A program made the position numbers and the translations under genes. Under the pieces are notes generated by a model. The model was not told where the DNA came from. It was given only the letters and a program-made list of their open reading frames with translations, and ran no database searches. From Glycomyces tritici (lineage in GTDB: Bacteria; Actinomycetota; Actinomycetes; Mycobacteriales; Micromonosporaceae): 64,000 nt of DNA. The DNA lies in NCBI RefSeq assembly GCF_030403505.1, contig NZ_JAUEMJ010000007.1, positions 186,001 to 250,000 on the forward strand, given 5' to 3'. Positions 23,522 through 44,414 of the stretch are shown in pieces; within the stretch, counting starts at the first letter, position 1; the number at the start of each line of letters is the position of its first letter.

Positions 23522-23536
23522 CTTGGTAAACACGTC

Positions 23537-25406: not shown

Positions 25407-25494
25407 CCGGACCCCTCCGGCCCCGCCCAATCCAGCCCAGCCCCGTCCCGGGAGTCTCCGCACCCCCGCACCACGAAGTGAAGGAACCCTCACC

Positions 25495-26911: not shown

Positions 26912-28120
26912 TCAGGCCGCCTCGGGCTCGCGCACGCCCCTCCACATCGCGAGGAACGCCACGAGACCCACTGCGGCGCACATGATCCACACGAACGACT
27001 GCTCGATCTGGAACAGGTAGGTGCCCACGGCCGGCCCCAGCGCGTAGCCGCCGATCTGGGCCGTGGTGATCGCCCCGATGTAGCGGCTGCGGTGCCGGTC
27101 CGTGGGGGCCGCGAGCGCCGGGTACGCCACCACCGAGGGCGCGGAGATGATCTCGCCGAACGTCCACACCAGGACCCCCGCGAAGCACACCCAGATCCCC
27201 GCCGGAACCCCGAACAGCGCCAGGCCCGCGCCGATGAAGAGGCTGCCGAACGCGATCGTCGTCCGCATCGGCAGCCGCTGCGCGTACCGGGTCACCGGCA
27301 GCTCGAACAGGATCACGATGGCGCCGTTCAAGGTCACGATCGTCCCGTACAGCCACGCCGGATGGCCCTCGCTCAGGATCTGCAGCGGCAGCACCGCCTG
27401 GTACTGCGACTCGATGAACCCGGTCAGGAACATCGCGACGATCACCAGCACGTACTTCGAGTCCTTGAAGACGTCCCGGTAGCTCACCGCCCGCGCTTCG
27501 TCGGGCGACTCCTCACCGTCGCGCGCGTTCGGGAGCAGGAGCAGCGCGATGAGCCCGAACGCGATGTGCGTCAACGCGTTCACCACGAACATCAGCGCGA
27601 ACGAATGCGTCAGCAGCCACACCCCGAGCATCGGCCCGGCCGCCGCGCCGACGTTCAGCCCCAGCCGCGCCGCGGCCGAGACCATCACGAGCCGCTGCGG
27701 CGGCGTCAGCGCGGCCATCATCGCCGCGGCCGCGGGCCGGTACATCTGCCCGAACAGGCCCGCCGCGAACGCGAGCGCGACGAGCAGCCGGTAGTCGTCG
27801 GCGAACGCGACCCCGAGCACCGCCAGTCCGGAGAGGAGCATCGACCCGACGATGACCTGCCGGGCGCCCCACCAGGCCGTGACCGTGCCCGAGGCGAAGC
27901 TCCCGACTATCGAGCCGACGCCGAACACCGTGAGCGCGAGCCCCGCGCCGGCGGGGGAGTGGCCGAGATCGGTGAGGTAGAGCGTGAGGAAGACCGCGAT
28001 GAAGGTGCCGGTGCGACTCAGCGCGATGCCGACGAGGAGGGTGATGACCGACGGCGGCAGGTCCCGCAGGGTGGACCAGACGCCGTCGTCGGCCTCCTCG
28101 GGGGCGCGGGTCCCGCTCAT
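26912..28120 (-). CDS. MFS exporter of the specialised-metabolite cluster (left operon)
   Basis: 402 residues, ATG at 28120 overlapping the preceding ATP-grasp gene by ATGA. Twelve hydrophobic segments are apparent, with the MFS loop after helix 2 (VTAWWGARQVIVGS) and a charged central loop (NARDGEESPDEARA). It resembles drug-efflux type transporters of the MdtH class. As the last gene of the six-gene leftward operon it probably exports the product or an intermediate. A second, unrelated MFS gene is in the rightward operon (38447-39682). Confidence 0.88.
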   Translation of the reverse strand: MSGTRAPEEADDGVWSTLRDLPPSVITLLVGIALSRTGTFIAVFLTLYLTDLGHSPAGAGLALTVFGVGSIVGSFASGTVTAWWGARQVIVGSMLLSGLAVLGVAFADDYRLLVALAFAAGLFGQMYRPAAAAMMAALTPPQRLVMVSAAARLGLNVGAAAGPMLGVWLLTHSFALMFVVNALTHIAFGLIALLLLPNARDGEESPDEARAVSYRDVFKDSKYVLVIVAMFLTGFIESQYQAVLPLQILSEGHPAWLYGTIVTLNGAIVILFELPVTRYAQRLPMRTTIAFGSLFIGAGLALFGVPAGIWVCFAGVLVWTFGEIISAPSVVAYPALAAPTDRHRSRYIGAITTAQIGGYALGPAVGTYLFQIEQSFVWIMCAAVGLVAFLAMWRGVREPEAA

Positions 28121-29340
28121 GCGGCTCCCCGCAGCGGCGTGCACTCGAAGATCGTCTCGGCTTCGGCGCGGTCGAGGATCTCCTGGCACTCGTTCGCACT
28201 GCCGCCCATGGCGATCAGGCAGCCGTAGCGGGCGATGTACCCGTCCGGCGGCATGAGGAGCTCGTCCCCGGGGGCCGCGACCTGGACCGTCTCGAGTTCG
28301 CCGGCGCGCGCGGGCGGGAGCGCGATCTTATCGACGACCGCGCTGCAGGGCGGCACGAGGAACCGGATGGCGGCGTGGCGGTCCTGGCGGTGGGTGAGGT
28401 CGGGCCGTGCGCCGAGGGCGAGCCGGGTGCCCGCGACGCCGGAGTCGATCCCGTTGGCCAGCATGCCGAGATAGGGGATGAGGTCGCCGCCGAGCCGGCC
28501 GTTGATCTCCACCAGGACGGGGCCTGAGGGGGTCAGTTTGACCTCGGTGTGGGTGCTGCCGTGGCGCCAGCCGACCGCTTCGTGGGCGGCGGCGAGCATG
28601 CCGGTGAGTGCCGCGTCGGCCAGCAGCGGGTCGTGCGGGTCGACGGTGTGCCCCATCTCCTCGAAGTACGGTTCGGGTCCGATCTGCTTGCGCGCCAGCG
28701 CGTACGGCAGGTACTCGCCGTCGATGACGGCGGCGTCCACGCTGATCTCGGGCCCGGTGAGGTACTGCTCCAGGAGCAGCGTCCCGTCGTTGCGCATGCC
28801 CGCCTGCCGGGTCCGCCTCGCCGCCGCGACGGCCGCGGCCAGGTCCTCGGCCCGGTCCACTTTGATCACGCCTTGGCTCGCGCCGAGTGCGATGGGCTTG
28901 ACCACCAGAGGGAATCCGATCGCGGCGGCCGCCTGAGCCCCGCCTTCACCCGGGGCGAGGACGTGGAAGGCCGGTTGCGGCAGCCCCGCTTCGGTGAGGG
29001 CCCGGCGGGTGGCGGACTTGTCGCGGACGGCCCGCACCGCTTCGGGGTCGGGGCCGGGCAGGCCGAGTTCGGCGGCGGCTTCGGAGGCGGCCTGGACGGC
29101 GGCCTCGTGCCAGCAGAACACGCCGAGGACGTTGTGCTCGGCGGCGACCCGCCGCACGGCGTCGCGGGCCGCTTCGGGGTCGAACACGTCGCAGACGGTG
29201 TGCCCGGCGAGGTACTTCGCCTGCCAGGTCGGCTCGGCGGGGTCGAGCGCCCACAAGGGGGGCCCGTCCGCGGCGGCGGAGGCCAGGAGGTACTCGCGGA
29301 ACAGCTCGTGCCCGGTCCCCATGATCAGCAGCAGGTCCAT
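28117..29340 (-). CDS. ATP-grasp carboxylate-amine ligase 1
   Basis: 407 residues, ATG at 29340. The ATP-grasp fold is visible: N-terminal Rossmann-like part with CWHEAAVQAASEAAAELGLPG (in part: AAAELGLPGPD), the lysine strand GFPLVVKPIALGASQGVI, LLEQYLTGPEISVDA and the metal-binding EINGRLGGDLIPY, with the Glu and Asn intact. The C-terminal BL00-type domain follows. Such enzymes join a carboxylate to an amine through an acyl phosphate. The substrate is unknown; a benzoate-type acid or an amino acid would fit the neighbours. It is coupled to the MFS gene. Confidence 0.85.
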   Translation of the reverse strand: MDLLLIMGTGHELFREYLLASAAADGPPLWALDPAEPTWQAKYLAGHTVCDVFDPEAARDAVRRVAAEHNVLGVFCWHEAAVQAASEAAAELGLPGPDPEAVRAVRDKSATRRALTEAGLPQPAFHVLAPGEGGAQAAAAIGFPLVVKPIALGASQGVIKVDRAEDLAAAVAAARRTRQAGMRNDGTLLLEQYLTGPEISVDAAVIDGEYLPYALARKQIGPEPYFEEMGHTVDPHDPLLADAALTGMLAAAHEAVGWRHGSTHTEVKLTPSGPVLVEINGRLGGDLIPYLGMLANGIDSGVAGTRLALGARPDLTHRQDRHAAIRFLVPPCSAVVDKIALPPARAGELETVQVAAPGDELLMPPDGYIARYGCLIAMGGSANECQEILDRAEAETIFECTPLRGAA

Positions 29341-29359
29341 CGGCGTCGCTCCATTCTGG

Positions 29360-30307
29360 TCAGGGCAGGATCAGGCCTTGCTCGGTGAACGCGTCCCGAG
29401 CGCCGGGCTGGTCGAGGACGCCCACTTCCTCGAACAGCCGCAGGGTCTTCGCCGCCGAGTGCCGGATGCCGGCCAGCACCCGCTCGCTCGAGAAGGAGTC
29501 GGCGATGACGTCCTTCACCTGCGTCTCGCTGAGCCCGGTGGACAAGAGCGCGTCCCGCGCGGGGTCGGTGGCCGGGCGCAGCGACCGGAGGACGAGCGGC
29601 GGCAGGTAGTGCGCGACCCGCTGCCGCAGCGGCGGTTCGAGCCGGCTCCACAGGTGCTTGAAGAAAGCGCTGAAGAAGGCGTGGTGGCGGCCTTCGTCGA
29701 TCGCGTGCTCGCGCACGGTCTCGCGCATGATGGTCACGACGCTCTCGTCCGGCGGGATGTCGGAGAGGATCGAGGTCACGAGCGTCTCGAACACCACGAC
29801 CTGGAGCAGTTCCACGAGCTTGCGGTGCTGCGGGAACTCCTCGCCCACGGCGTCGAGCCCGGCGATGAACGGCCCGAAGTCGTAGTCCAGCGCCGGGATC
29901 CCGGAGCGGTTCACGAGCTGGTGCTGGACGTCGAGGCTGTACAGCGAGTGGTACCCCTCGTCGACGACGATCTTGTACGCGTCCATGCGGGTCGTCTCGT
30001 GCAGGTGCAGTCCGCTGGAGCCGTCCGCGATCTTCTGCGAGGCGCGCACGACCACCGCGACCTCGAAATGCATCGTGAACCGCAGCCACTGGTACGCGTG
30101 CTGCGCCGTCAGGTACCGGCGCAGCACGGGGTCGTCCTGATCGAGGAGCGGGTGGTCCAGGTGCGGCACCAGGTGCTCGGGGAAGAACGCCTTGTGGATG
30201 TCGTCCTCGGCGTCGATCATCTTGCGGTGCTCGGCCCGGACGCCGGCGCGTTCGTACCAGTTGCGGAAGGCCTCGATCCGCGGCATCGGGGCGTCGCCTG
30301 TGAACAC
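29360..30307 (-). CDS. AurF/CmlI-type diiron N-oxygenase
   Basis: 315 residues from a GTG at 30307, two bases after the previous stop and behind GGGAG; an ATG at 30286 is the alternative. All seven diiron ligands of the AurF family can be placed: Glu82 (HFEVAVV), Glu117 and His120 (VVDEGYHSLY), Glu174 (VFETLV), and His201, Glu205, His208 (HAIDEGRH). Characterised members (AurF, CmlI, AzoC) oxidise aryl amines to hydroxylamine, nitroso or nitro groups. This one probably acts on the aminobenzoate made by the chorismate-aminating pair at 35700-37822. Being between carbamoyltransferase and ATP-grasp genes suggests that it may act on a conjugate rather than the free acid. Confidence 0.85.
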   Translation of the reverse strand: MFTGDAPMPRIEAFRNWYERAGVRAEHRKMIDAEDDIHKAFFPEHLVPHLDHPLLDQDDPVLRRYLTAQHAYQWLRFTMHFEVAVVVRASQKIADGSSGLHLHETTRMDAYKIVVDEGYHSLYSLDVQHQLVNRSGIPALDYDFGPFIAGLDAVGEEFPQHRKLVELLQVVVFETLVTSILSDIPPDESVVTIMRETVREHAIDEGRHHAFFSAFFKHLWSRLEPPLRQRVAHYLPPLVLRSLRPATDPARDALLSTGLSETQVKDVIADSFSSERVLAGIRHSAAKTLRLFEEVGVLDQPGARDAFTEQGLILP

Positions 30308-30309
30308 GG

Positions 30310-32049
30310 CTACTCCCGGGTCCGCGCGGGGTGGTCGGCGGGCAGCTCGCGCCCGGGCTTGCCCACCAGGTACCCCTCGATGTAGAGGTGGTCGATCTCG
30401 GTGCGGGCGAAGGTCCGCAGCGCGTCCTCGGGGGTCTCGACGATCGGCTCGCCGTTGTCGTTGAACGAGGTGTTGAGGACGATCGGCACACCGGTGCGCT
30501 CGGCGAAGTGCGCGATCAGCTCGTGGTACTCGGGGTCCACTGCGGCGTCGACGGTCTGGACGCGGGCGGTGCCGTCCACATGGGTGATCGCGGGCAGCCC
30601 GTCGCGGCGGTCCTCGCGGACCGAGGGGACCAGCAGCATGAACGGGCTCGAACCGCGGAAGTCGAACCAGTCCTCGACGGCCTCGGCGAGCACCGAGGGC
30701 GCGTAGGGCCGGAACGGCTCCCGGTGCTTCACGGTGTCGTTCAGGTAGTCGCGCACGCGCGGGTGCCGCGGGTCGGCGAGGATCGACCGGTGCCCGAGCG
30801 CGCGCGGGCCCATCTCGGAGCCGCCGTTCACCCACGCCACGATGCGGTGCTCGGCCAGCAGGTCGGCCACCTCGCTGATCGGGGCCTGCCGCCACTCCAG
30901 CGTGCCTTCGTACGCCTGCAGCGCTTCGAGGACGCGCTCCTGCGAATAGCGCTGCCCGTAGGCGGCGGTGGTCATCTGCCCGCGCCGCTCGGTCCCGCCT
31001 TCGAGGATCTGGTGCCAGCCGTACAGGGCCGCGCCGATGGCGACGCCGGAGTCGCCGGCCGGGGCCGGGATGAACACCTCCTTGAAGGGGCCCTCGGCGA
31101 GGACGCGGTGGTTGGCGACCGAGTTGAGCATGACGCCGCCGCCGAGGCAGAGCCTGGTCTCGCCGGTGCGGCGGTGCGCCTCCCCGGCGAGGTGCAGCAT
31201 GGCCTCCTCGAGCTCGTCCTGGACCTTGCGCGCCACGTCCTTGGCGAACCGGCAGTCCCAGCGCCGCTCGGTGAGCGACTCGAACTCGGCGCCGTCTGAG
31301 GCGACGATGTCCTTCCAGATCTGCTCGAGACCCGCCTGGGAGACGGTGATGTCGAAGCCGTCGAAGGTGAGCCACCGGCCCCAGTCGGGCCGGGGCTCGC
31401 CGTAGGGCGCCAGGCCCATCGTCTTGCCGGCCTCGGGGTAGCCGCCGCACTCGAAGACTCCGAAGTCGGGCGTCCCGTACCGGGTGGTGAACCCGAGCTT
31501 GGCGGTGAAGAAGTCGTAGAACAGCCCGATGCTCATGTCGCTGTAGTCGACCGGGTACGCCGTCTCGGCCACGCGGGTGAGTTCGACGCCGCTGCCGGTG
31601 AACAGGGTGTGCTTCTCGACCATGCCTTCGCCTGAGCGGCTGCCGGCCTGGTCGACGATGAGCACGGCCGCCCGCTCGAACGGCGAGGTGTAGAACGCGG
31701 TGGCGGCGTGCGCCAGGTGGTGCGAGGGGAACGGGAAGGCCCGCACCTTGCTCTTGTCCTTGAGCGGCAGGTCGCGCAGGATGCGCGGGACCGTGCGGTC
31801 GCCGAGCGGCCGGTTGCCGACGATGAGGTCGACCTCGTCGATGCCGATCCCGGCGGCGTCGAGGCAGTAGGCGATGGACTTGATCGGGATGAGTTTCGTG
31901 AGGCGCTCGAAGTGGCCCTGGATCAGGAACCCTTCGGAGTGCTTGATGCGGTCGAGCCGCTCCTCCTCGATCGCGGCGAGGACCTCGCCGTCCTTGACGA
32001 TGGCGGCCGAGCGGTCGTGGCTGAGGTTGACGCCGAGGATGTAGGTCAT
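30310..32049 (-). CDS. O-carbamoyltransferase 1 (TobZ/NodU/CmcH family)
   Basis: 579 residues, ATG at 32049. The family has a Kae1-like N-terminal domain that makes carbamoyl-adenylate from carbamoyl phosphate and ATP, and a YrdC-like part that transfers the carbamoyl to a hydroxyl. Visible markers: LSHDRSAA with His11, the metal pair His110 and His114 (PSHHLAHAATA), VDQAG with Asp133, LGGGVMLNSVANH, GPRALGHRSIL and NTSFNDNGEPIV. It is a full-length member. Products are O-carbamates on sugars or aglycones, which fits the three glycosyltransferases nearby. It shares only partial identity with its neighbour at 32083-33792. Confidence 0.93.
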   Translation of the reverse strand: MTYILGVNLSHDRSAAIVKDGEVLAAIEEERLDRIKHSEGFLIQGHFERLTKLIPIKSIAYCLDAAGIGIDEVDLIVGNRPLGDRTVPRILRDLPLKDKSKVRAFPFPSHHLAHAATAFYTSPFERAAVLIVDQAGSRSGEGMVEKHTLFTGSGVELTRVAETAYPVDYSDMSIGLFYDFFTAKLGFTTRYGTPDFGVFECGGYPEAGKTMGLAPYGEPRPDWGRWLTFDGFDITVSQAGLEQIWKDIVASDGAEFESLTERRWDCRFAKDVARKVQDELEEAMLHLAGEAHRRTGETRLCLGGGVMLNSVANHRVLAEGPFKEVFIPAPAGDSGVAIGAALYGWHQILEGGTERRGQMTTAAYGQRYSQERVLEALQAYEGTLEWRQAPISEVADLLAEHRIVAWVNGGSEMGPRALGHRSILADPRHPRVRDYLNDTVKHREPFRPYAPSVLAEAVEDWFDFRGSSPFMLLVPSVREDRRDGLPAITHVDGTARVQTVDAAVDPEYHELIAHFAERTGVPIVLNTSFNDNGEPIVETPEDALRTFARTEIDHLYIEGYLVGKPGRELPADHPARTRE

Positions 32050-32082
32050 CGGTGCGCGCTCCTTCCGGTGCTGGGGTGTGGG

Positions 32083-33792
32083 TCAGCCGCTGTTGCGGCG
32101 GTAGAGGGTGCCTTCGCTCCAGACGAGGTCGACGCGGCCCCAGGCGAGGGCGGAGGCGACGTCGGGGAAGAACCCGCTGCCCTTGAGGTTCGCGCTGGTG
32201 TTGCACAGCACGGGGATGCCGCTGACCGCGAAGTAGGACTCGAGGAGGCGCCGCACGGCGCCGTCGCCGCGTCCGACGGTCTGGAGCCGGGCCGTCCCGT
32301 CGAGGTGGACGATCGCGGGGATGCGGGCCCGCCACTCGGGGCGGACCTCGTGGTCGAAGAGCATGTACGGGTCCGGGCTGCCGGGGGTGAAGACGCCGGG
32401 GGCGGCCTCTTCCAGGCAGATCGGCGCCACGGGCCGGTACGGTTCGCGGTCCTTGACCTCGTTGAGGCGGTCCTTCATCTTCGGCGAGGTGGCCGGGGCG
32501 ATGATCGACCGGCTGCCGAGCGCGCGCGGCCCGAGTTCGGCGCGGCCGTCGAGGACCACGCACGGCTCGCCGGTGCGGTGGAGGATCCGGCCCAGCTCCT
32601 CCTCGTCCACCGCGGCGGTGCTCCAGCCTGCGGGGACTTCGGGGGTGGGCTTGAGCGCGGGGCCGAGCTTCACATGCCAGTCGACCGGTGCGGCCGGGTT
32701 CGCACGGCCCAGGGCCGCCGCGCCGATCGCCGATCCGGAGTCGTTGGGGAACGGCGGCACCCACACGTCCGTGAACTCATCGAGCGCGCGGAGCCGGGAG
32801 TTCCACTTGATGTTCAGGGCGCAGCCGCCGACGAAGCAGAGGTTCCAGGGGCCCTCGCCCCGCCACTCGCGCACCTTGGCCCGCAGCCCCTCGGAGAGGA
32901 GCCGTTCGAGGAACACGTGGACGCTGGCGAGCACGTCCGCGTCGGAGGCGGCGCTGAGGCCGGCGCCGCGCACGATCCGCTTGACCTCGCGGAAGTAGTG
33001 GTGCAGGTAGTCGAGCACCGGTTCGGAGGTGGAGCCGAAGCCGCCCACCGCATGGCGGTAGCCGACCGCCAGGGGCTCGGCGCCGAGGAAGTTCTCCTCG
33101 TACTTCTCCCGCAGCACGGCGATGACGTCCTCTTTGGGCGATCCGAGCGCGATGTACGCCATGAGCTTGCCGGCCACCGAGAGGTCCTCGTTGACCGAGG
33201 CGGGGCGCTCGTCCCAGTGGAACGGTCCGAAGTGGTGCGCGGCGACGGCGTACGTGTGCCCGGTGAGCGGGAACAGCGCGCCGCCGTTCTCGACCGTCCC
33301 GTCCGGGTCGACGTGGTAGAGCCGCGGGAAGCTGCCGCCGTCCCACACCAGGACCAGCGCGCTCTCGCGCCGCTGCCCGAAGGGGCTGAGGCCGTAGGCG
33401 CTCGCCACGTGGCCGGCGACGTGGACATGGCTCGTGTAGGGCCGCGCCCTGCCCGCGATCGGCAGGGTCCCGTCGAATCCGGGCTCGAACAGGTTCGGCA
33501 CGGCCTCGGTCTCGCGGTAGGGGGCGAGCTGGAGCAGGACGGGCTCGCCGTCCGACTCGAGGCTCACCTGCCCGTACTTGGCGCCGTCCCAGCCGTCGAC
33601 GACCCACCGGTCGACCTGGTCGGGCCGGTAGCCGAAGTCGGCGAGGAGCTCGGTGACGACGGCGAGGTCGGCCACCTGGCCGTGCCGGGCGCCGTTGCCG
33701 AGCTTCTCCATCTCGACGCTGAAGACCAGCCGGTCGCCGTCGATGAGCGCGACGGCGCCGTCGTGCGTGAGTTTGAGGCCGCAGACGATCAT
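32083..33792 (-). CDS. O-carbamoyltransferase 2 (TobZ/NodU/CmcH family)
   Basis: 569 residues, ATG at 33792 overlapping the preceding gene by ATGA. Same family as the next gene: LTHDGAVAL with His10, His124 and His128 (HVHVAGHVASA), Asp151 (LVWDGGSF), GGCALNIKWNSR, GPRALGSRSIIAP and NTSANLKGSGF at the C terminus. It diverges strongly from carbamoyltransferase 1 (for example VFSVEMEKLGNG for AAIEEERLDRI), so the two probably modify different hydroxyls or different substrates and are not a recent duplication. It carries all expected catalytic residues. Confidence 0.92.
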   Translation of the reverse strand: MIVCGLKLTHDGAVALIDGDRLVFSVEMEKLGNGARHGQVADLAVVTELLADFGYRPDQVDRWVVDGWDGAKYGQVSLESDGEPVLLQLAPYRETEAVPNLFEPGFDGTLPIAGRARPYTSHVHVAGHVASAYGLSPFGQRRESALVLVWDGGSFPRLYHVDPDGTVENGGALFPLTGHTYAVAAHHFGPFHWDERPASVNEDLSVAGKLMAYIALGSPKEDVIAVLREKYEENFLGAEPLAVGYRHAVGGFGSTSEPVLDYLHHYFREVKRIVRGAGLSAASDADVLASVHVFLERLLSEGLRAKVREWRGEGPWNLCFVGGCALNIKWNSRLRALDEFTDVWVPPFPNDSGSAIGAAALGRANPAAPVDWHVKLGPALKPTPEVPAGWSTAAVDEEELGRILHRTGEPCVVLDGRAELGPRALGSRSIIAPATSPKMKDRLNEVKDREPYRPVAPICLEEAAPGVFTPGSPDPYMLFDHEVRPEWRARIPAIVHLDGTARLQTVGRGDGAVRRLLESYFAVSGIPVLCNTSANLKGSGFFPDVASALAWGRVDLVWSEGTLYRRNSG

Positions 33793-35180: not shown

Positions 35181-35699
35181 AGTCGTCTCCCTACTGTGAT
35201 GGCGAGAAGAACGCGGGGAAGGGGTCCGGCCCCGCATGCGAGCGGGTCGGCTATAGGGGTATCGGGTTCCAGGCGGTGACACGACGTGTCGGGCCGGTGA
35301 CGATCGTATGAGACGCGGGGGCCCGTGTCAAGCACGTCCTGGAATGCGCTTCCACAGTGGTGGGAGTGCATGAGCTGGCAACACTGAGGCGTGATGGTTC
35401 CATTGTGACCAGAGGTGTCGCACCGTCGGCGGAACCCACCGTGCGATGCGTGCGGAGTGTCCCGAACGCCGGATCTATGACCACAGTCACAAACGCCGGA
35501 TCACCGTGGATTTCGCCGCCGCTGAGCACCGCAATCGTCACCGTGGGGAGTCGCCGCATGTTCGAAGACTTTCGCACCAGGGGCCTCAATGGATGCAGTT
35601 CATCCCAGTCGGCCCAATGGTGTGGGAGCGTTGCGCAACGGTATTGGGCGGCCGATGCTAATCTGACCCGATCCCCCAGCCGGCGAAAGGGCCCCATTG
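35181..35699. promoter_or_regulatory. Divergent control region of the metabolite cluster (519 bases)
   Basis: No gene is supportable here; it must carry the promoters of both operons. It holds an 11-bp direct repeat AACGCCGGATC at 35465-35475 and 35492-35502 (27-bp spacing), an inverted repeat TGAC-CACA-GTCA at 35478-35489 between those copies, and a perfect 12-bp palindrome CGTTGCGCAACG at 35629-35640 about 60 bases before the rightward start. Base composition is less GC-rich than the flanks. These are candidate regulator sites; no regulator gene lies inside the cluster. Confidence 0.6.
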
Positions 35700-37229: not shown

Positions 37230-37822
37230 AGGCACTGCTCATCGACGCGTACGACAGCTTCGCGCACATCATCTACCAGTACCTGCGCGTCCTCGACATC
37301 GACACGGACGTGATCCGCTCCGGCGACATCGCGCCCGCCGGGGCCCTCGCCCACGACGCCGACTTCGTCCTCCTCGGCCCCGGACCCGGCACCCCCGAGG
37401 ACTCCGGCCACGTCGAGATGGTCCGCGCCCTCGCCGGCGTCAAACCCGTCCTCGGCGTCTGCCTCGGCCACCAGGCCATCGGCGTCGCCTTCGGCGCCCA
37501 GGTGCGGCCGGCCCGCCACCTCATGCACGGCAAGACCAGCACCGTCGAGCACGACGGCCGCGGCGTCTTCACCGATGCGCCGCAACGCTTCAGCGCCACC
37601 AGGTACCACTCGCTGATCATCGTCGAGGACACCCTCCCCGACGAGCTCGAAGTGACCGCCCGCGCCGCCGACGACGGCTACGTCATGGGCGTGCGGCACC
37701 GCGGCCACCTCATCGAAGGCGTCCAGTTCCACCCCGAGTCGATCCTCACCGAATCCGGCATGGGTCTCTTCGCCGGGTTCGCCGCCGCCGTCCGCGCGCA
37801 GCCCGCAGAGGCCCGCGCATGA
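37226..37822 (+). CDS. Glutamine amidotransferase subunit, TrpG/PabA type
   Basis: 198 residues, ATG at 37226 overlapping the preceding TGA (ATGA). Class I amidotransferase: nucleophile Cys79 in GVCLGHQAIG, oxyanion strand LLGPGPGTPEDSG, and the His169/Glu171 pair in GVQFHPES. It supplies ammonia to the chorismate aminase. Because it sits inside a cluster that has no other tryptophan or folate gene, it is a dedicated copy for the metabolite. Confidence 0.92.
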   Translation: MKALLIDAYDSFAHIIYQYLRVLDIDTDVIRSGDIAPAGALAHDADFVLLGPGPGTPEDSGHVEMVRALAGVKPVLGVCLGHQAIGVAFGAQVRPARHLMHGKTSTVEHDGRGVFTDAPQRFSATRYHSLIIVEDTLPDELEVTARAADDGYVMGVRHRGHLIEGVQFHPESILTESGMGLFAGFAAAVRAQPAEARA

Positions 37823-38442
37823 AGATCCTGACGATCAACGGCTCCGAGCGCTCCCGCGGCTCCACCTGGCTCGCCGTCCAGGCCATCGTGGAGCGCGCCC
37901 GCGCCCGCGGCTGCGAGACCCGCGAAGTCGACCTCGCCGAGCAGCGCGTCGTCCGCTGCGACTGCGGCCGCTGCAACTCCCGCCCCGACCCCTGCCCCGT
38001 GGACGACGACGTGGGCGCGATCGTCGCCGCCATGGTCGAGGCGGACGCCGTCTTCCTCGCCGCGCCCGTGCACGGCTTCGGCCTCTCCTCGCTCATGCAG
38101 ACCTTCGTCGAACGCGCCGGGGTCGGGCACCTGCGCTTCGAGCGGCCCCTCACCAACACCATCGGCGCCGCCGTCGTCATCGGCCGCCGCTACGGCCACC
38201 TCGACGTGCACGCCCAGCTCCTGCACAACCTGCTGCTCAACCGCTTCATCATCGTCGGCAGCGGCTTCCCCGTGACCATCCACTCCGGAGGCGAGCAGGG
38301 CGTCCTCTCCGACACCGAGGGCATGGAGGCGCTGCACCGCACCGTCGACCGGATCATCGACATCGGCACCGCCCTCGCCGAGTCCGGGACGCGGCTGCCG
38401 CGCCCGGCCGAGGTCGAACGACGCGTCGGAAGGACGAGCTGA
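37819..38442 (+). CDS. Flavodoxin-like NAD(P)H-dependent FMN reductase
   Basis: 207 residues, ATG at 37819 overlapping the preceding gene by ATGA. The FMN-binding P-loop is INGSERSRGSTWLAVQA; a Cys-rich segment DCGRCNSRPDPCPVDDDV and the flavin loop AAPVHGFGLSSLMQTFVERAG (in part: PVHGFGLSSLMQTF) match multimeric flavodoxin / iron-sulfur flavoprotein relatives. Such proteins reduce quinones, nitroaryl or nitroso compounds, or supply electrons. Here it could reduce an N-oxidised aryl intermediate or power the diiron enzyme; both are inferences. Confidence 0.85.
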   Translation: MKILTINGSERSRGSTWLAVQAIVERARARGCETREVDLAEQRVVRCDCGRCNSRPDPCPVDDDVGAIVAAMVEADAVFLAAPVHGFGLSSLMQTFVERAGVGHLRFERPLTNTIGAAVVIGRRYGHLDVHAQLLHNLLLNRFIIVGSGFPVTIHSGGEQGVLSDTEGMEALHRTVDRIIDIGTALAESGTRLPRPAEVERRVGRTS

Positions 38443-38446
38443 CCGA

Positions 38447-39682
38447 GTGACCACGACGCAGGCCCCGCAGGCCCTCCCCTGCGGCCTGGGCCTCCTCATC
38501 GGCAGCAAGTTCGCCTCCACCGTCGCCTACGCGACCTCGTGGGTCCTGCTGCCGCTCTACGTCTACCAGGCGAGCGGCTCGGCCGTGCTGACCGCGCTGG
38601 CCTCCGCGGCGAACGTGCTCCCGTTCCTCCTCTTCGGACTCTTCGCCGGGGCCGCCGTCGACCGCTCCTCGCCGGTGCGGGTCATGGCCTGGATGGAAGT
38701 GGCCAACGCCGCCGTGCTGCTGTGCGTGCCGCTCCTGGCCGCCACGATCGGCGCGGGCCCGGTCCTCCTGTGCGCCATCGGGTTCGCCTCCGCGACCGCA
38801 TACGTCTGGTTCGACGTGGCCAGCGCGGCGCTCCTCCCGGCGCTCGCCGGGGCCGACGGGGTCTTCCGCGCCAACAGCTACCTGTGGATGACCACCACGG
38901 TGCTCACGGCCGTCGCCGCCCCGGTCGGCTACTTCCTGCTCGACGCGCTCCGGCTCGGCCCCACGTTCGCCGTCCTCGCGGGCTGCTACCTGCTCTCGGC
39001 GGTGCTCATCGCCGCGATCCGGCCGCGCCCGGACACGGCCGGCTCCGCCCGGCCCGAGCCCGGCGCGGTCTGGGCCGGCGTCAAGTACCTGGCCGCACAC
39101 CCGCTGCTGCGGGCCTACACCACGGTGAACGTGGGCGTCGGGGTGAGCGCCGGGGCCGTCTACGGGATGCTGGTCGTCTTCGCCTCCCGCGCGCTCGGCC
39201 TGCCCAGCGACGACTACCGGGTGGCGTGGATCGTCGCCGCGTCAGGGGTGGGCGCGCTGGTGGGCGCGATCGCGGCCCGGCGCTTCAAGGGCGTGCCGCC
39301 GATCCCGGCGGCCCGCTGGATGACCGGCCTCGACCTGGTCCTGCTGCTCGCGTACGCCGCCGCGCCGTCCTGGCAGCTGGCCGCCGTGCTGCTCCTGTGC
39401 TGGAACACCGTCCACACCTGCTTCCTGGTGGTGGGCATCTCGGTGCGCCAGACGGTGACGCCGCAGCGGCTCCAGGGCCGGGTGAACGCGGTGGGCCGCA
39501 TGATCGTCTGGGGCTCGGTGCCGCTCGGTACGCTGCTGTGCGGCGGCCTCACCGAACTCATCGGTCCACGGTGGGCACTGGCCGCCCTGGGCGTGTTCGC
39601 GTTCGCGAGCCTCGTCGCCGCTCTGCGCGCCCCCAGCGCGCTCACCATGGACAACGCACTTCTTGAGAAAGCAGAGACATGA
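38447..39682 (+). CDS. MFS exporter of the right operon
   Basis: 411 residues, GTG at 38447, four bases after the preceding stop. Twelve membrane segments with the MFS loop RSSPVRVMAWMEVAN after helix 2, and a C-terminal half similar to MFS_3/enterobactin-exporter-like permeases. Probably exports the cluster's product or confers self-protection. It overlaps the next gene by ATGA. It is not closely similar to the MFS protein of the left operon. Confidence 0.88.
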   Translation: MTTTQAPQALPCGLGLLIGSKFASTVAYATSWVLLPLYVYQASGSAVLTALASAANVLPFLLFGLFAGAAVDRSSPVRVMAWMEVANAAVLLCVPLLAATIGAGPVLLCAIGFASATAYVWFDVASAALLPALAGADGVFRANSYLWMTTTVLTAVAAPVGYFLLDALRLGPTFAVLAGCYLLSAVLIAAIRPRPDTAGSARPEPGAVWAGVKYLAAHPLLRAYTTVNVGVGVSAGAVYGMLVVFASRALGLPSDDYRVAWIVAASGVGALVGAIAARRFKGVPPIPAARWMTGLDLVLLLAYAAAPSWQLAAVLLLCWNTVHTCFLVVGISVRQTVTPQRLQGRVNAVGRMIVWGSVPLGTLLCGGLTELIGPRWALAALGVFAFASLVAALRAPSALTMDNALLEKAET

Positions 39683-40911
39683 CCTCATCCCGTCCACTGA
39701 GGGTGCTCTTCGTGGCCTTCAGCCGCTCCAGCCTCGGCCACGTGACGCGCATGCGCACGGCCGCCAGGCGCTTCGCCGACGCCGGGCACATCGTGGCCGT
39801 CGCCGCCCACGAGGAGGTCCGGCACCTCATCGAGCACGCCGGGCTGGCATGGATCGGCATCGACGAGATCGGGCCCGCCCCGGCCTGGCGCGGCATGAGC
39901 GATGTCGCGAGCCTGCGCGCGTTCGCCCGCACGCGGCTCGCCAGCCCCATCTACGTGCAGGCCTCCCTGCGCGACGAGCTGCGCGCCATCGACGAGTTCG
40001 GGCCGGACGCCGTGGTCAGCGACATGCGCAACACCGCGTCCGTGGCGGCCTCGATGCGGGGGCTGCCGAGCTTCACCTGCCACAACCTGCGGCTGTTCAA
40101 GCACCCGATGCACGCGGTGCTCCCGGAGATCCTGGCGACCCTGGAGGCGATCGGCGTCGAGCCCGAGCACCGTGTGCCCCTTGGGGACGCGGTGCTCGTG
40201 CCGGACCTGCCGCTGCTGGACCCGCTCTCCGGCGTCCCGGCCGAGACCGCCGGGCTCATGGCCGAGCTGACCGCGGAGATCCGCCACATCGGACCGCTCG
40301 TGCCGCAGGAGCTGCTGGCGCCGCCGGTCGCTTCGATGCGCGAACCGGTCCTGAACATCACGCTCGGCGGTTCGGGCGCGGGGGACAAGGACCTGCTGCG
40401 GGTCGTGGCCGCCGCGAGCGGCCTCGGGGTGCGCCTCGCGGTCACCCTCGGCGTGGAAGGCCCCGACAGCGACGCGCTCGCCGACCAGGTGCGGGCCGCG
40501 GCGGGGGGCGCCGAGACCGAGATCGCGGCGTTCCGGCACGACGCGGTCGACCTCATGGCGCGCAGCGCCGCCGCGGTCGTCCATGGTGGACACTCCTCGA
40601 TGATCGAGGGACTGCTGTGCGCGACGCCGCTGGTGTTCACGCCGCACTCCGCCGAGCAGCGCGGCAACGCCGCCCGCGTGGCCGCGCTCGGCCTCGGGAC
40701 GGTCGTCGCCGACGACGACCCCGCCGACGCCGTCACCGACGCGATCCGCGCGGCGCTCGCCGCCGACCGGGGGCCGCACGACGCGTTCGCCGCCGTGCTG
40801 CGCTCCGCCGACGGCGCGGGCGCGATGCTCGAGACCGTCGAGCGCGCGGTGGCACTGTACCGCGCCCACAGCCGTGCGGGCGTGGCGAACGGGGCCGCCG
40901 GTGCGCGCTGA
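39679..40911 (+). CDS. GT-B glycosyltransferase (GT1/GT28-like)
   Basis: 410 residues, ATG at 39679 coupled to the MFS gene (ATGA). An N-terminal acceptor domain begins RVLFVAFSRSSLGHVTRMRTAA. The C-terminal nucleotide-sugar domain has VHGGHSSMIEGLLCATPLVFTPHSAEQ (in part: VHGGHSSMIEGLLCATPLV), the usual HGG(S/T) and donor-binding pattern of MGT/UGT-type enzymes, and VLNITLGGSGAG. It probably adds an activated sugar to the aglycone. It is one of three glycosyltransferases of different folds in this operon. Confidence 0.85.
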   Translation: MTSSRPLRVLFVAFSRSSLGHVTRMRTAARRFADAGHIVAVAAHEEVRHLIEHAGLAWIGIDEIGPAPAWRGMSDVASLRAFARTRLASPIYVQASLRDELRAIDEFGPDAVVSDMRNTASVAASMRGLPSFTCHNLRLFKHPMHAVLPEILATLEAIGVEPEHRVPLGDAVLVPDLPLLDPLSGVPAETAGLMAELTAEIRHIGPLVPQELLAPPVASMREPVLNITLGGSGAGDKDLLRVVAAASGLGVRLAVTLGVEGPDSDALADQVRAAAGGAETEIAAFRHDAVDLMARSAAAVVHGGHSSMIEGLLCATPLVFTPHSAEQRGNAARVAALGLGTVVADDDPADAVTDAIRAALAADRGPHDAFAAVLRSADGAGAMLETVERAVALYRAHSRAGVANGAAGAR

Positions 40912-41995
40912 CATCGCTCTCTCCACCGCGATCATGACCCACCCGGCCCGCGAGGACCGCGCGCGCAAGCTCGCCGAATCGCTGCCGGACCTCAACCCGG
41001 CCGTCCTCGTGGACGACACCGAACCCGGCCGGGGCAACCTCGGCAACGCCCTGCGCGCCTGGGGCGCAGTGGGGGAGGACGCCACGCACCACCTGGTGCT
41101 CCAGGACGACGTCGTCCCCTGCGACGGCTTCACCGCGCTGGTGCGCCGGGCGGTCGGCGCCCGCCCGGACGCCGCGATCAGCCTGTTCTGCGAATGGGGT
41201 TCGCGCAGTGCGACCCTCGCGCGCGTCGCGGCCCGCCGCGGCTGGGGCTGGGCCCGCGCGGTCGACATGTACACGCCCTCGCAGGGCCTCGTCATGCCGC
41301 GCGACACCGCCCTCGCCTTCGCGGCCACCGAGGACGCCGGCGGCGCCGACGACCTCGCGCTCGTCGCCTACCTGCGCGGGAACGGCGTCGAGAACCTCGT
41401 CACCGTGCCGAACCTGCTCGAGCACGACGACCGGTTGAGCCTGACCGCCAACGGGTTCCAGGGTCCGCGGCTCGCCGTCTGCACCGCGCCCGCCGGCGCC
41501 GACCCGGACTTCGGCACGCCCGCCGCCGGGACCGGCCTCACGCGGCTCCCGTACGCCTCCTGGATGCGGGTCCACGCCGAGTGGTTCTACTGCGGCGAGT
41601 CGCCCGAGGCGTACACGTGGCTCGGGGAGTTCGGCGACACGCGCCTCCCCGAGGGCTTCCGCAAGACCGACCTGGCCGAGCGGTTCCGCGCGGACCTCGC
41701 CGAAGTCGGCGCGCCGCTGACGCAGGCGGCGAGCGAACTGACCCTCTTCGAGTACTGGACCGTCCACTTCGCACTCGGCCTCGTCCAGCCCGAACCGCTC
41801 GCAACCCCGCCCGGCCCGTTCGCCGAGGCCGCGTTCGCCACCGCGTTCCCCGGCCTGTTCCGCCGCTACCTGCCGCTGGACACCGTCGACGCCCTGCGCG
41901 GCAGCGCCGGCCGCCTCGCCGCCGCCGCGTTCGAACGCGGCGCCGCCGCCGACATCGAACGGCCGCAACCGGCCTGGTACGAGGAGACCCGATGA
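40901..41995 (+). CDS. Putative GT-A-type glycosyltransferase with unassigned C-terminal region
   Basis: 364 residues from the GTG at 40901, which overlaps the previous gene by 11 bases; a family-like start MRADIALSTAIMTHP supports this. The N-terminal half resembles a GT-A Rossmann domain: AIMTHPAREDRARKLAESLP, the possible DxD-like site HLVLQDDVVPCDGF and MYTPSQGLVMPRD. The C-terminal half (about 210-364) matches nothing I recognise. There are no membrane segments. The donor and acceptor are unknown. Between two other glycosyltransferases and a P450, a role in assembling a short glycan on the product is plausible. Confidence 0.65.
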   Translation: MRADIALSTAIMTHPAREDRARKLAESLPDLNPAVLVDDTEPGRGNLGNALRAWGAVGEDATHHLVLQDDVVPCDGFTALVRRAVGARPDAAISLFCEWGSRSATLARVAARRGWGWARAVDMYTPSQGLVMPRDTALAFAATEDAGGADDLALVAYLRGNGVENLVTVPNLLEHDDRLSLTANGFQGPRLAVCTAPAGADPDFGTPAAGTGLTRLPYASWMRVHAEWFYCGESPEAYTWLGEFGDTRLPEGFRKTDLAERFRADLAEVGAPLTQAASELTLFEYWTVHFALGLVQPEPLATPPGPFAEAAFATAFPGLFRRYLPLDTVDALRGSAGRLAAAAFERGAAADIERPQPAWYEETR

Positions 41996-43410
41996 CCGTG
42001 CCCGGGCCCGCGCCCCACCGGTGGCTCGGGCGGCGGCGCAACGCCCACGAGTACGCCGTCGACCCGGTCGGCTACACCGCCCGCCTCCACCACGAGTACG
42101 GCCCCGTCAGCGGGCTCGTGCACGGGGACCGGCGCCAGGTCTTCGCGTTCGGGCCCGAGCACAACCGGACCGTCCTCACCCGCGGCGACACCTTCCACAC
42201 CGTGCTCGAGTACGCCATCCCGCAGGGCATCCGGGACGCCAGGCGCGGCATCGGGCTGCTCAACATGAACGGCCCCGAGCACCGCCGGGCCCGCCGCGTC
42301 GCCACGCCCTCGTTCAGACCGCAGGCAGCTCTGGCGCACGGCGAGCTGATCGCCCGCCTCGCCGCCGAAGAGGTCGACTCGTGGATGCCCGGCGAGCCGT
42401 TCGACCTGACCGACCGGATGCGCCGCCTGACGCTTCGGATCGCGTGCCTGTGCTTCTTCGGCGTCGACATCGCCGCGCAGGCCGACCACATCGGACGCAT
42501 GGTCCAGGACATGCTGGCGCTGCGCTACTTCGCCTCCTCCATCCGGTACTTCCCGTTCGACCTCCCCGGCACCCCGTACCGGCGGCTGCTCACCGTGATC
42601 CGCAGGCTCGACGGCGCGCTCGCCGAGATCATCGAGACCCGCCGCGCCGGCGCCCGCCCCGAAGGCGCCGCCCCCGACCTGCTCCAGTCCCTCATGGACG
42701 CCCGCGGCGAGGACGGCGGCGCCTTCGGCGACGACCAGCTCGTCGGGCAGCTCACGACCCTCCTCGTCGCCGGGCACGAGACCTCCTCGAACACCCTGGC
42801 CTGGACGCTCCTGCTGCTCTCGCAGCACCCGGCCGAACTCGACAGGCTCCTCGCGGCCCTTCCGGAACGGCCCGAGGGGCGGGCGGTCGCGCTCGAGTTC
42901 CCCGCGGGCCTGGACCACGTGCTCAAGGAGGTCCTGCGGCTCCTGCCGCCCGGACCCAACACCTCCCGGATCGCCGTGGAGCCCACCGAGATCGGCGGCC
43001 ACGAGATCCCGGCCTGGTGCCAGGTCGTCACCAGCAAGTTCGCCACCCACCGCGACCCCGAGGTCTTCGCGGAGCCGCTCCGCTTCCACCCCGCCCGGTG
43101 GGAGACCCTGCGGCCCAGCCTGTACCAGTACCTGCCGTACGGGGCCGGCCCGCACGCCTGCATCGGCGCCGCGTTCGCCGACCTGGAGATGAAGACTGTG
43201 CTCGCCACCGTCCTCGGCCGCTACCGGCTCGACCCGGCCCCCGGCGCCGACGTCTCGCGCCAGGTCGGACTCATGATGGCGCCCAAGGGACCCGTACCCG
43301 TGATCGCGCGCCCCCGCGCCGACCCGGCCCCGCCGCCCACCGCGGTCACGGGCGACCTGCACGACATGGTGGACCTCGACGGCGAGACCCGATGGAGGCT
43401 CGGATGGTAG
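41992..43410 (+). CDS. Cytochrome P450
   Basis: 472 residues, ATG at 41992 (ATGA overlap). The oxygen-binding I-helix is LLVAGHETSSNTLAW (Gly261-Thr264 region), the K-helix ExxR is KEVLRLL (Glu313, Arg316) and the heme-ligand loop is YLPYGAGPHACIG with Cys390. The usual Phe at the start of the heme loop is Tyr here. The sequence is like CYP102/CYP4-type bacterial P450s in the region from HHEYGPVSGLVH, longer than the ~400-residue norm. It probably hydroxylates the scaffold or a sugar, making sites for carbamoylation or glycosylation (inference). No ferredoxin gene is adjacent. Confidence 0.93.
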   Translation: MTVPGPAPHRWLGRRRNAHEYAVDPVGYTARLHHEYGPVSGLVHGDRRQVFAFGPEHNRTVLTRGDTFHTVLEYAIPQGIRDARRGIGLLNMNGPEHRRARRVATPSFRPQAALAHGELIARLAAEEVDSWMPGEPFDLTDRMRRLTLRIACLCFFGVDIAAQADHIGRMVQDMLALRYFASSIRYFPFDLPGTPYRRLLTVIRRLDGALAEIIETRRAGARPEGAAPDLLQSLMDARGEDGGAFGDDQLVGQLTTLLVAGHETSSNTLAWTLLLLSQHPAELDRLLAALPERPEGRAVALEFPAGLDHVLKEVLRLLPPGPNTSRIAVEPTEIGGHEIPAWCQVVTSKFATHRDPEVFAEPLRFHPARWETLRPSLYQYLPYGAGPHACIGAAFADLEMKTVLATVLGRYRLDPAPGADVSRQVGLMMAPKGPVPVIARPRADPAPPPTAVTGDLHDMVDLDGETRWRLGW

Positions 43411-44414
43411 AACACCCCCAGGTCAGCCTGGTGATGGCGACCTGCGACAAGCGCGACTACCTCGCGCTCACCCTCGAATCCCTGCTGGCGCAGACCTACC
43501 GGCGGTTCGAGGTGGTCGTGTGCGACGACGGGACCGCCGGCGGCGTCGCCGACATCGTCGACCCGCTCCGCGACCGGCTCGACCTCACCCTCGTGGTGCA
43601 GGAGAACCGGGGCCGCGCCGCCGCCCGCAACGCCGCCCTCGAACGCGCCCAAGGCGACCTCGTCGTCTTCATGGACGACGACCGCATGGCCGCCCCCGGC
43701 TTCGTCGCCGCCCACGTCGCCGCCGCCGGCGACGACTCGCACGCCGCCATCGGCTGGAAGCGCCGCGCCCTCACCTGGTGGCGGCCCGGCGTCCTCCCCG
43801 TCGGCGAGGACGACCTCCTGCGGCTCGCCGACCGCGTCGGCGGCGCCGAGCGGCTGCGCGAACCGATCCGCCTCCTCGAACCCGGCGACCTCGCCGCCGA
43901 CCCCGAAGCGGCCCTGGCCCGCGTCGAACTGGGCGACGAGCCCGACAACTACCACGCGGTCGTCGAGGAGTACGGGACCAGCCTCGACGGCTTCCGGTTC
44001 GGATGGGCGCTGGCGACGACGGCGAACCTGGGCGTCTCGCGCGAGGCGGTCGCGAAGGCCGGCGGCTTCGACGAGTCCTTCACCGGCTGGGGCCTGGAGG
44101 ACACCGACCTGAGCTACCGGCTGCACCGCCTCGGCATCCGGTTCTCGGTGCGCACCGAGGCCGTGAACCACCACCAGGTCCACCCGCTGGCCGATCCGAA
44201 CCCGATGGTGGCGCAGCGGGTCATGCGCGCCCAGCTGATGCGCAACCTCGACCACTTCTGCCGGCGGCACCGCGCGCTCGACGCCTACCTGTTCCGGCGG
44301 CGCTGGGAGCACGCCATGACCCTGGCCGAGGCCGACCGGCTCCTGAAGCTGGTCGAAGGCGAGGAGGACCCGGTCCTGCGACGCGAGCTCGAATCGCTCT
44401 ACGGGGACCGGTAA
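43404..44414 (+). CDS. GT2-family glycosyltransferase
   Basis: 336 residues from the ATG at 43404, overlapping the P450 stop by 7 bases and behind GGAGG at 43395-43399; an in-frame ATG at 43392 is less well placed. The GT-A core is clear: VSLVMATCDKRDYLALTLESL, VVVCDDGTAGG, RAAARNAALERAQGD, the DxD site VFMDDDRM, and the GT2/GT7-type GWGLEDTDLSYRLHRLG. It transfers a sugar with inversion. As the last gene of the right operon it is followed at once by a perfect terminator hairpin. Confidence 0.9.
   Translation: MVEHPQVSLVMATCDKRDYLALTLESLLAQTYRRFEVVVCDDGTAGGVADIVDPLRDRLDLTLVVQENRGRAAARNAALERAQGDLVVFMDDDRMAAPGFVAAHVAAAGDDSHAAIGWKRRALTWWRPGVLPVGEDDLLRLADRVGGAERLREPIRLLEPGDLAADPEAALARVELGDEPDNYHAVVEEYGTSLDGFRFGWALATTANLGVSREAVAKAGGFDESFTGWGLEDTDLSYRLHRLGIRFSVRTEAVNHHQVHPLADPNPMVAQRVMRAQLMRNLDHFCRRHRALDAYLFRRRWEHAMTLAEADRLLKLVEGEEDPVLRRELESLYGDR

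What the first reader, a model, noticed from the sequence alone, without database searches (positions are those of the whole stretch)
26912..44414. Possible undescribed PKS/NRPS-free metabolite cluster: chorismate amination, N-oxidation, glycosylation, double carbamoylation
Two divergent operons hold 14 genes: two ATP-grasp ligases, two O-carbamoyltransferases, an AurF-type diiron N-oxygenase, a TrpE/PabB-TrpG/PabA pair, a flavodoxin-like reductase, three glycosyltransferases, a P450 and two MFS exporters. Nearly all genes within each operon overlap or are a few bases apart, and strong hairpins at 26846-26888 and 44415-44443 bound it. A product with an N-oxidised aryl amine, sugars, O-carbamates and an ATP-grasp-made amide follows from these families. 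I know no characterised pathway with this set.
Basis: partly seen in the sequence, partly recalled or inferred. Interest (0 to 1): 0.88.

Follow-up and report, generated by a model that had tools for sequence, protein, structure and literature searches.

The report
Two adjoining gene clusters, not one
A stretch of a soil bacterium's chromosome read as one new antibiotic-type pathway is better explained as two separate gene sets lying side by side, one for a sugar-decorated compound made from chorismate and one for an oxidised, carbamoylated amino-acid-like compound, and neither matches a characterised pathway that I could find.

Summary
The 14 genes are present in two tight divergent operons as described; 13 of 14 labels hold, and the third glycosyltransferase (40901-41995) matches no Pfam family. 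The window is from a Glycomyces close to G. algeriensis.

The one-pathway reading is not supported. The minus operon (module A: MFS, ATP-grasp, AurF-type, two carbamoyltransferases, ATP-grasp) stands alone in Micromonospora sp. WMMD1082 and lies on another contig than B in G. paridis. The plus operon (module B) stands without A in 8 of 13 genomes that carry it; one unnamed close relative has the same flanks and B but no A.

B's TrpE-like protein is 44.5% identical to SgcD and its flavoprotein 49% to SgcG. So B probably makes 3-enolpyruvoylanthranilate (OPA) from chorismate and glycosylates it. The known OPA-cyclising ligase is missing in 12 of 12 carriers searched, and present in 5 of 6 control genomes.

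AurF's relatives sit by diaminopropionate- and ornithine-carbamoyltransferase-like genes (at least one in 26 of 43 loci) and never by TrpE (0 of 43), so an aliphatic amine is the likelier substrate.

Cooperation of A and B is possible: an A variant adjoins B in Catellatospora coxensis. Nothing was shown biochemically.

The parts
26912..28120 (-). Module A: MFS transporter (MFS1)
   Evidence: Pfam MFS_1 3e-45; last gene of module A in G. algeriensis, G. luteolus, YM15, G. paridis and WMMD1082
28117..29340 (-). Module A: ATP-grasp ligase 1, L-amino acid ligase-like
   Evidence: Pfam ATP-grasp_4 2e-18; LAL_C2 under its cut-off; 58% in WMMD1082; split over two reading frames in G. paridis
29360..30286 (-). 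Module A: AurF-family diiron oxygenase (alternative GTG start at 30307)
   Evidence: Pfam AurF 3e-24; E82, E117, H120, E174, H201, E205, H208 (numbered from the GTG at 30307) invariant in 54 of 54 rows aligned, the window's included
30310..32049 (-). Module A: carbamoyltransferase 1, TobZ/GdmN/NovN-like
   Evidence: Pfam Carbam_trans_N and _C; best solved relatives NovN, GdmN, TobZ
32083..33792 (-). Module A: carbamoyltransferase 2, NodU-like
   Evidence: Pfam Carbam_trans_N and _C; NCBIfam NodU 669 bits, under the 1000-bit cut-off; 62% relative beside AurF in the CB03234 locus
33789..35180 (-). Module A: ATP-grasp ligase 2, BacD-like
   Evidence: Pfam ATP-grasp 5e-8; NCBIfam alanine-anticapsin ligase 169 bits, under cut-off 850; homology runs to the GTG at 35180 in four Glycomyces
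35700..37229 (+). Module B: TrpE-like protein of the SgcD (ADIC synthase) type
   Evidence: Chorismate_bind 1e-82; 44.5% to SgcD against 37-38% to trp-operon TrpE; four motif blocks shared with SgcD-likes; tree, see full report for its limits
37226..37822 (+). Module B: TrpG/PabA-like glutamine amidotransferase
   Evidence: GATase 2e-48
37819..38442 (+). Module B: SgcG-like ADIC dehydrogenase (FMN, Cys-rich motif)
   Evidence: FMN_red 1e-25; 49% to SgcG of S. globisporus C-1027 over 91% of the query; four cysteines in the aligned motif
38447..39682 (+). Module B: MFS transporter (MFS2)
   Evidence: MFS_1 3e-15; present in the B loci
39679..40911 (+). Module B: glycosyltransferase, GT28/GT1-like
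   Evidence: Glyco_tran_28_C 1e-5; MGT and MJ1255 models under cut-off
40901..41995 (+). Module B: protein of unknown family, possible glycosyltransferase
   Evidence: no Pfam or significant PDB match; 12 sequences from B loci with 76% mean column identity
41992..43410 (+). Module B: cytochrome P450
   Evidence: Pfam p450 2e-66; absent from the B locus of G. tenuis and of G202
43404..44414 (+). Module B: family 2 glycosyltransferase
   Evidence: Glycos_transf_2 2e-22 (frame 42021-44414); absent with the P450 in G. tenuis and G202
26846..26888 (.). GC-rich hairpin between the end of module A and the neighbouring sugar-binding gene
   Evidence: z -4.4 (minus) and -2.6 (plus) against shuffles
44415..44443 (.). 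GC-rich hairpin between the end of module B and a convergent EF-hand gene
   Evidence: z -5.6 (plus) and -4.3 (minus) against shuffles

Best explanation
Two separable biosynthetic modules lie back to back. Module B (35700-44414): the TrpE/TrpG pair aminates chorismate to ADIC, the SgcG-like flavoprotein oxidises ADIC to 3-enolpyruvoylanthranilate (OPA), and glycosyltransferases and usually a P450 decorate the product, exported by MFS2. No cyclising acyl-AMP ligase is present, so the end product is an OPA- or 3-hydroxyanthranilate-derived glycoside rather than benzoxazolinate. Module A (26912-35180): the AurF-type diiron enzyme N-oxygenates an amine, probably an aliphatic amine of an amino acid, two carbamoyl-adenylate-type carbamoyltransferases carbamoylate it, two ATP-grasp ligases join it to other amino acids, and MFS1 exports it. 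Shown: gene content, separability, the SgcD/SgcG kinship and the absence of the ligase. Inferred: every reaction, A's substrate, and that the two products are separate.
For: Module A alone, same order, in WMMD1082 and on another contig than B in G. paridis. Module B with no A gene in the fetched stretch in 8 of 13 B genomes, none of which has an AurF match at E 1e-60 anywhere, and with A on another contig in a ninth. Syntenic locus of G197 with the same flanking genes, B present and A absent (L153); in YM15 an antiporter gene directly adjoins A, so A is bounded as exactly six genes. TrpE-like: 44.5% to SgcD against 37-38% to trp-operon TrpE, 28-29% to fused TrpEG, 23% to the PhzE-type row; motifs QxGH, RPIAGT, TMTG and EWxExLxK shared with SgcD-likes. 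Flavoprotein 49% to SgcG. SgcG-adjacent ligase absent in 12 of 12 B genomes searched, found in 5 of 6 genomes with other SgcG-likes. AurF loci outside Glycomyces: 26 of 43 with at least one of PALP, OCD or OTC within 8 kb, OTC in 26, TrpE in 0.
Against: All four Glycomyces genomes found with A also carry B, three of them adjacent. An A variant adjoins B in C. coxensis. Glycomyces A has none of the SbnA/SbnB/OTC genes that support the amino-acid reading, and 3 of 4 Glycomyces A genomes have no SbnB match at E 1e-8. Unrooted, the TrpE tree shows B, SgcD-likes and the rest as three groups meeting at one node, so it does not by itself join B to SgcD. Six B loci of Catellatospora type have no TrpE/TrpG of their own, and the PhzE-type protein that could supply ADIC is present in 308 of 354 family genomes, so it proves little. 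One of the six control genomes with an SgcG-like (G098) lacks the ligase too. 16 of 43 AurF loci have no carbamoyltransferase match near. The match to solved AurF is weak (1.7e-8), and AurF-like enzymes also include a hydrazone oxidase (passages of PMC13061610).
Confidence: 0.6

Rival explanations
1. One composite pathway: the ATP-grasp ligases of A couple an N-oxygenated, carbamoylated amino acid to the glycosylated OPA unit of B, giving one hybrid product in the genomes where A and B adjoin.
For: Divergent neighbours in G. luteolus, G. algeriensis, YM15 and the window; a different A variant beside B in C. coxensis; AurF and B co-occur in 5 of 354 family genomes, against 19 with AurF and 13 with B (four of the five are related Glycomyces, so the p value of 3e-4 is not independent evidence); an AurF-like (P0022) and an SgcG-like (P0136) are each reported with a longest JGI contig of 15368 bases.
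Against: Each module stands alone elsewhere; unlinked in G. paridis; the A variant of C. coxensis is absent from the B loci of five relatives.
Confidence: 0.25
2. One reading: the TrpE/TrpG pair makes anthranilate or p-aminobenzoate, AurF oxidises its aryl amine, and carbamates and sugars are added.
For: Adjacency and the AurF family name; the solved relatives are p-aminobenzoate N-oxygenases.
Against: 0 of 43 non-Glycomyces AurF loci have TrpE near; the TrpE is nearer SgcD than trp-operon TrpE in identity and motifs; A lives without B.
Confidence: 0.06
3. B's TrpE/TrpG is an ordinary anthranilate synthase that boosts anthranilate supply, and the flavoprotein does something else; the Catellatospora-type genomes use housekeeping anthranilate instead.
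For: PIAGT motif shared with TrpE; TrpE-less B loci in six genomes; NCBIfam ranks trpE_most first, though under its cut-off; the unrooted tree does not join B to SgcD by itself.
Against: Identity and motifs shared with SgcD and with TrpE-likes beside SgcG-likes; 49% identity of the flavoprotein to SgcG, whose substrate is ADIC (passages of PMC10098953).
Confidence: 0.09

Closest known systems
Benzoxazolinate cassette of C-1027 (sgc) and of benzobactins (xsb, pbz)
   Same: SgcD-like chorismate enzyme with its TrpG partner and SgcG-like ADIC dehydrogenase (PMC10098953 passages); a locus lacking SgcD is known there too (xsb), as in the Catellatospora-type B loci
   Different: No acyl-AMP ligase for ring closure in the 12 B loci or the 12 B genomes searched; glycosyltransferases, a P450 and MFS instead of an enediyne or NRPS
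Paulomycin and other chorismate-derived glycosides
   Same: Glycosylated product derived from chorismate (search listing and starts of abstracts only)
   Different: Paulomycin genes were not compared here; module B has no deoxysugar genes inside the operon
AurF, CmlI and related ferritin-like diiron N-oxygenases
   Same: Pfam family match, and the seven recalled metal-ligand positions conserved
   Different: Distant in sequence (best PDB profile match 1.7e-8); many relatives sit by amino-acid and carbamoyl genes
Nebramycin, novobiocin and geldanamycin carbamoyltransferases (TobZ, NovN, GdmN) and NodU
   Same: Both domains of the family in CT1 and CT2
   Different: Two copies beside an AurF-type enzyme; acceptors unknown
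SbnA/SbnB diaminopropionate and viomycin-type carbamoyltransferase gene sets
   Same: Many relatives of A carry SbnA-, SbnB- or OTC-like genes
   Different: Module A of Glycomyces and WMMD1082 has none of these inside it; the viomycin comparison is recalled, not tested

Membership tests
ADIC/OPA (SgcD-SgcG) pathway, module B | SgcD-type chorismate enzyme | tested here: met
   44.5% identity to SgcD and four shared motif blocks. Rooted on the distant PhzE-type or PabB-like row, B and the SgcD-likes form one clade (0.991); unrooted the tree is undecided. 7 of 13 B loci have the gene
ADIC/OPA (SgcD-SgcG) pathway, module B | SgcG-type FMN and Fe-S dehydrogenase | tested here: met
   49% over 91% of the query to SgcG; cysteine motif aligned; Fe-S content itself not testable
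Benzoxazolinate biosynthesis | cyclising acyl-AMP ligase (XsbC type) | tested here: not met
   0 of 12 B genomes (G202 not searched) and 0 of 1 A-only genome, against 5 of 6 control genomes; none in the window or 12 B loci. I therefore do not file B as benzoxazolinate
AurF family, module A | PF11583 domain with the diiron ligands | tested here: met
   E 3e-24; positions invariant in 54 of 54 rows; which residues are ligands is recalled from AurF
AurF family, module A | oxidation of an aryl amine | not testable with these tools
   genomic context argues against it
O-carbamoyltransferases | both Carbam_trans_N and Carbam_trans_C domains | tested here: met
   CT1 and CT2
NodU | NCBIfam equivalog cut-off | tested here: not met
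   CT2 669 bits, CT1 165 bits, cut-off 1000: NodU-like, not NodU
One 14-gene cluster | modules stay together in relatives | tested here: not met
   A without B beside it in WMMD1082 and G. paridis; B without A beside it in 9 of 13, and with an A variant beside it in one more
A described cluster | entry with the same gene set in MIBiG | not testable with these tools
   no MIBiG or antiSMASH here; paper searches gave none

The most novel reading that the evidence does not exclude
Module A and its relatives are a widespread but undescribed pathway family in which an AurF-type diiron enzyme N-hydroxylates a side-chain amine of an amino acid (diaminopropionate in the SbnA/SbnB-bearing loci) and carbamoyltransferases then cap it, giving N-hydroxyurea or O-carbamoyl-hydroxylamine amino acids that ATP-grasp ligases put into small peptides. 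With one carbamoyl on N and one on O, ring closure to a quisqualate-like oxadiazolidinedione is conceivable in the diaminopropionate version. In Glycomyces such a unit may also be joined to the glycosylated 3-enolpyruvoylanthranilate of module B.
Probability: 0.3. Interest if true: 0.75.

Novelty: new variant of a known kind. Interest (0 to 1): 0.52.

Why it matters
If right, module B is a further use of the SgcD/SgcG branch of chorismate metabolism, beside enediyne and NRPS benzoxazolinates: a ligase-free, glycosylated one kept by Glycomyces and Catellatospora. Module A marks a family of AurF-type enzymes that probably act on amino-acid amines and are often paired with carbamoyltransferases, which gives genome miners a concrete handle. 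The two-module split also changes the experiment: each operon should be deleted or expressed alone before a joint structure is sought.

Tried and rejected
What remains is that the 7 genomes whose B has TrpE/TrpG are without that match (four listed as such, three absent from the list of matches) and the 6 others have it (Fisher p 6e-4), but this is close to one contrast between two lineages. Glycomyces as a diaminopropionate user was tested by its SbnB gene: no match in G002, G003, G201 and G093, one 33% match in G001.

Led nowhere: fold of the 40901-41995 product; Rfam on the window (none); plasmid search for that protein (weak hits) and for AurF (21-37% only); paper searches. Papers: PMC10098953, PMC11705231, PMC13061610, PMC10724926, PMC11479980 and PMC2922099 were seen as found passages only; paulomycin and the other hits in the listing and starts of abstracts only. 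The viomycin comparison, the AurF ligand residues and quisqualate chemistry are recalled.

Rows dropped and faults: in the TrpE tree three rows (chor_L180, chor_L187, chor_L177) were wrong proteins picked by length; one search repeats the tree without them (24 rows). The row L065, a duplicate of L111, was left out. In one search the GT2 query was out of frame. My gene caller is crude and was trained on the window; it set ATP-grasp 2 too short (35024), and one search supports 35180.
Full report
What is there. The region 26912-44414 holds two tight divergent operons of six and eight genes, with spacings of -11 to +33 bases. Pfam supports 13 of the 14 functional labels. The product of 40901-41995 has no family; it is conserved beside the other B genes and may be a glycosyltransferase, but a 12-sequence model was poor and matched nothing. 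Hairpins at both ends are real against shuffles and sit between convergent genes. The AurF search found G. paridis at 90%, and the genome scan found G. luteolus, YM15 and G. algeriensis. G. algeriensis is closest over the whole stretch, 90-97% per protein, so the window is a Glycomyces.

Two modules. I followed the AurF gene into 47 contigs and into the 354 held genomes of the family, and the flavoprotein gene into the same 354. AurF relatives at E up to 1e-60 occur in 19 of 354. Flavoproteins at E up to 1e-50 occur in 37, of which 13 are of the B type (79-97% identity). I looked at the B locus of all 13 (for YM15 the stretch shown ends in MFS2). Three have module A as divergent neighbour (G001, G003, G201). 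One, G. paridis, has A on another contig. One, C. coxensis, has an A variant beside B. Eight (G093, G095, G108, G187, G188, G190, G197, G202) have no A gene in the stretch fetched and no AurF match at 1e-60 in the genome, though G202 is a 3.3 Mb assembly whose locus lies on a contig of 12.5 kb. Conversely, G332 has the six A genes in the same order with no B near (L131, L132); it is named Micromonospora sp. WMMD1082 here because its contig length equals that of P0009.

Names. G001, G002, G003 and G006 are named through their loci. YM15 (G201), G. tenuis (G093) and three Catellatospora (G108, G188, G190) are named by equal contig lengths.

The clearest single case is G197 (L153). The genes that lie at 12563-19959 in the window are followed directly by TrpE to GT2 and then by the gene that lies at 44456-45139, without module A and without the genes at 20118-26820. 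In YM15 (L141) an antiporter gene adjoins MFS1 directly. Together these bound module A as exactly the six genes 26912-35180.

Module B. The TrpE-like protein is 44.5% identical to SgcD, taken from the C-1027 plasmid of S. globisporus, against 37-38% to trp-operon TrpE, 28-29% to fused TrpEG and 23% to a PhzE-type row. It shares with SgcD and with TrpE-likes beside SgcG-like genes the blocks QxGH, RPIAGT, TMTG and EWxExLxK, where trp-operon rows read SQR, HPIAGT, TLSG and NK. On a tree of 24 sequences B, the SgcD-likes and all the rest are three groups that meet at one node; rooted on the distant PhzE-type or PabB-like row, B and the SgcD-likes are one clade with 0.991 support, but unrooted the tree does not decide. 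The flavoprotein is 49% identical to SgcG over 91% of its length, and a relative at 50% is named ADIC dehydrogenase by its source (P0195). SgcD and SgcG make ADIC and then OPA (passages of PMC10098953).

That paper assigns ring closure to an acyl-AMP ligase. The C-1027 ligase has no match at 1e-20 in 13 genomes (12 of the 13 B genomes, G202 not searched, plus WMMD1082). The same query matches in 5 of 6 genomes with other SgcG-likes, the exception being G098, so the blank is meaningful. Hence B probably makes OPA but not benzoxazolinate, and its glycosyltransferases and P450 make something else. The P450 and GT2 genes are missing in G. tenuis and G202, so a smaller product is possible.

Six B loci of Catellatospora type (G006, G095, G108, G187, G188, G190) lack TrpE/TrpG. 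All six genomes hold a 636-638 aa PhzE-like protein; two were scanned and show the chorismate and amidotransferase parts in PhzE order, and that of C. coxensis matches PhzE 3r74 at 5e-157. It could supply ADIC from elsewhere, as in xsb. But 308 of 354 family genomes have one, so this is only compatible. The seven genomes whose B carries TrpE/TrpG have no such match.

Module A. The AurF-type protein keeps the seven recalled diiron ligand positions in 54 of 54 aligned rows. Within 8 kb of AurF in the 43 non-Glycomyces loci, 26 have at least one of an SbnA-like (PALP), SbnB-like (OCD) or OTC-like gene, 14 have all three, 27 have some carbamoyltransferase, 16 have none, and none has TrpE (tblastn E 1e-12; loci cut by contig ends are included). 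The SbnA and SbnB models are the best NCBIfam matches but under their cut-offs. Glycomyces A lacks these genes and has a second, NodU-like carbamoyltransferase; a 62% relative of that one also adjoins AurF in Streptomyces sp. CB03234 (L005), next to a FemAB-like gene and near a tRNA-editing-like gene. The most economical reading is N-oxygenation of an aliphatic amino-acid amine followed by carbamoyl transfer and ATP-grasp ligation. The substrate is not known.

Do A and B work together? For: adjacency in three Glycomyces and the window, and a different A variant beside B in C. coxensis. Co-occurrence is 5 of 354 genomes against 19 and 13, but four of these are related. Against: both stand alone, and G. 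paridis keeps both unlinked. I give the composite reading 0.25.

Novelty. Paper searches of an open-access library found no pathway with either set; subscription papers and MIBiG were not searchable. B is a new variant of the ADIC/OPA branch; A is a new combination of known families. No reaction was demonstrated.

Noticed in passing
L158:7524-17166 and L106 (WMMD1082 and G098): Another ADIC/OPA-type locus: SgcD-like, TrpG, SgcG-like, PALP, ATP-grasp, MFS, B3/4 tRNA-editing-like domain, cupin, chorismate mutase and UbiD genes (Pfam run on L158 only), and no C-1027-type ligase match in either genome. SgcG-likes of 45-53% identity occur in 24 of 354 family genomes besides the 13 with B; few of those loci were looked at.
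   Followed up: partly
L005:1466-10930: Streptomyces sp. CB03234 locus with a NodU-like carbamoyltransferase and AurF, an amino acid permease, a tRNA-editing-like gene, a FemAB-like gene and an ATP-grasp gene: looks like an amino-acid analogue pathway.
   Followed up: partly
L190-L195: PhzE-type chorismate enzyme in 308 of 354 family genomes but without a match in the seven whose module B has its own TrpE/TrpG; why nearly all keep it is unclear.
   Followed up: partly
L071:11267-12235 and L072:11530-12528: A second GT2 gene, 71-74% identical to that of module B, elsewhere in G. luteolus and G. algeriensis.
   Followed up: no
L110:7622-8778: ATP-grasp 1 of G. paridis module A is split over two reading frames, so it may be broken or a sequencing error.
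   Followed up: partly
window 20118-26820: A 743-aa gene, a LacI-type regulator and an ABC sugar-transport set lie beside module A; they are present in G. luteolus but missing at the syntenic place in YM15 and G197.
   Followed up: partly
proteins P0022 and P0136; P0135 and P0267: An AurF-like and an SgcG-like protein, and an SgcG-like and a 40901-type protein, are reported with longest contigs of identical length (15368 and 7915 bases), possibly the same contigs.
   Followed up: no
L073/L074 (C. coxensis): A variant of module A with SbnA-, SbnB- and OTC-like genes sits between an aldo/keto reductase gene and GT2 of module B; in G095, G108, G187 and G188 that reductase gene lies within about 2 kb of GT2 without it.
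   Followed up: yes
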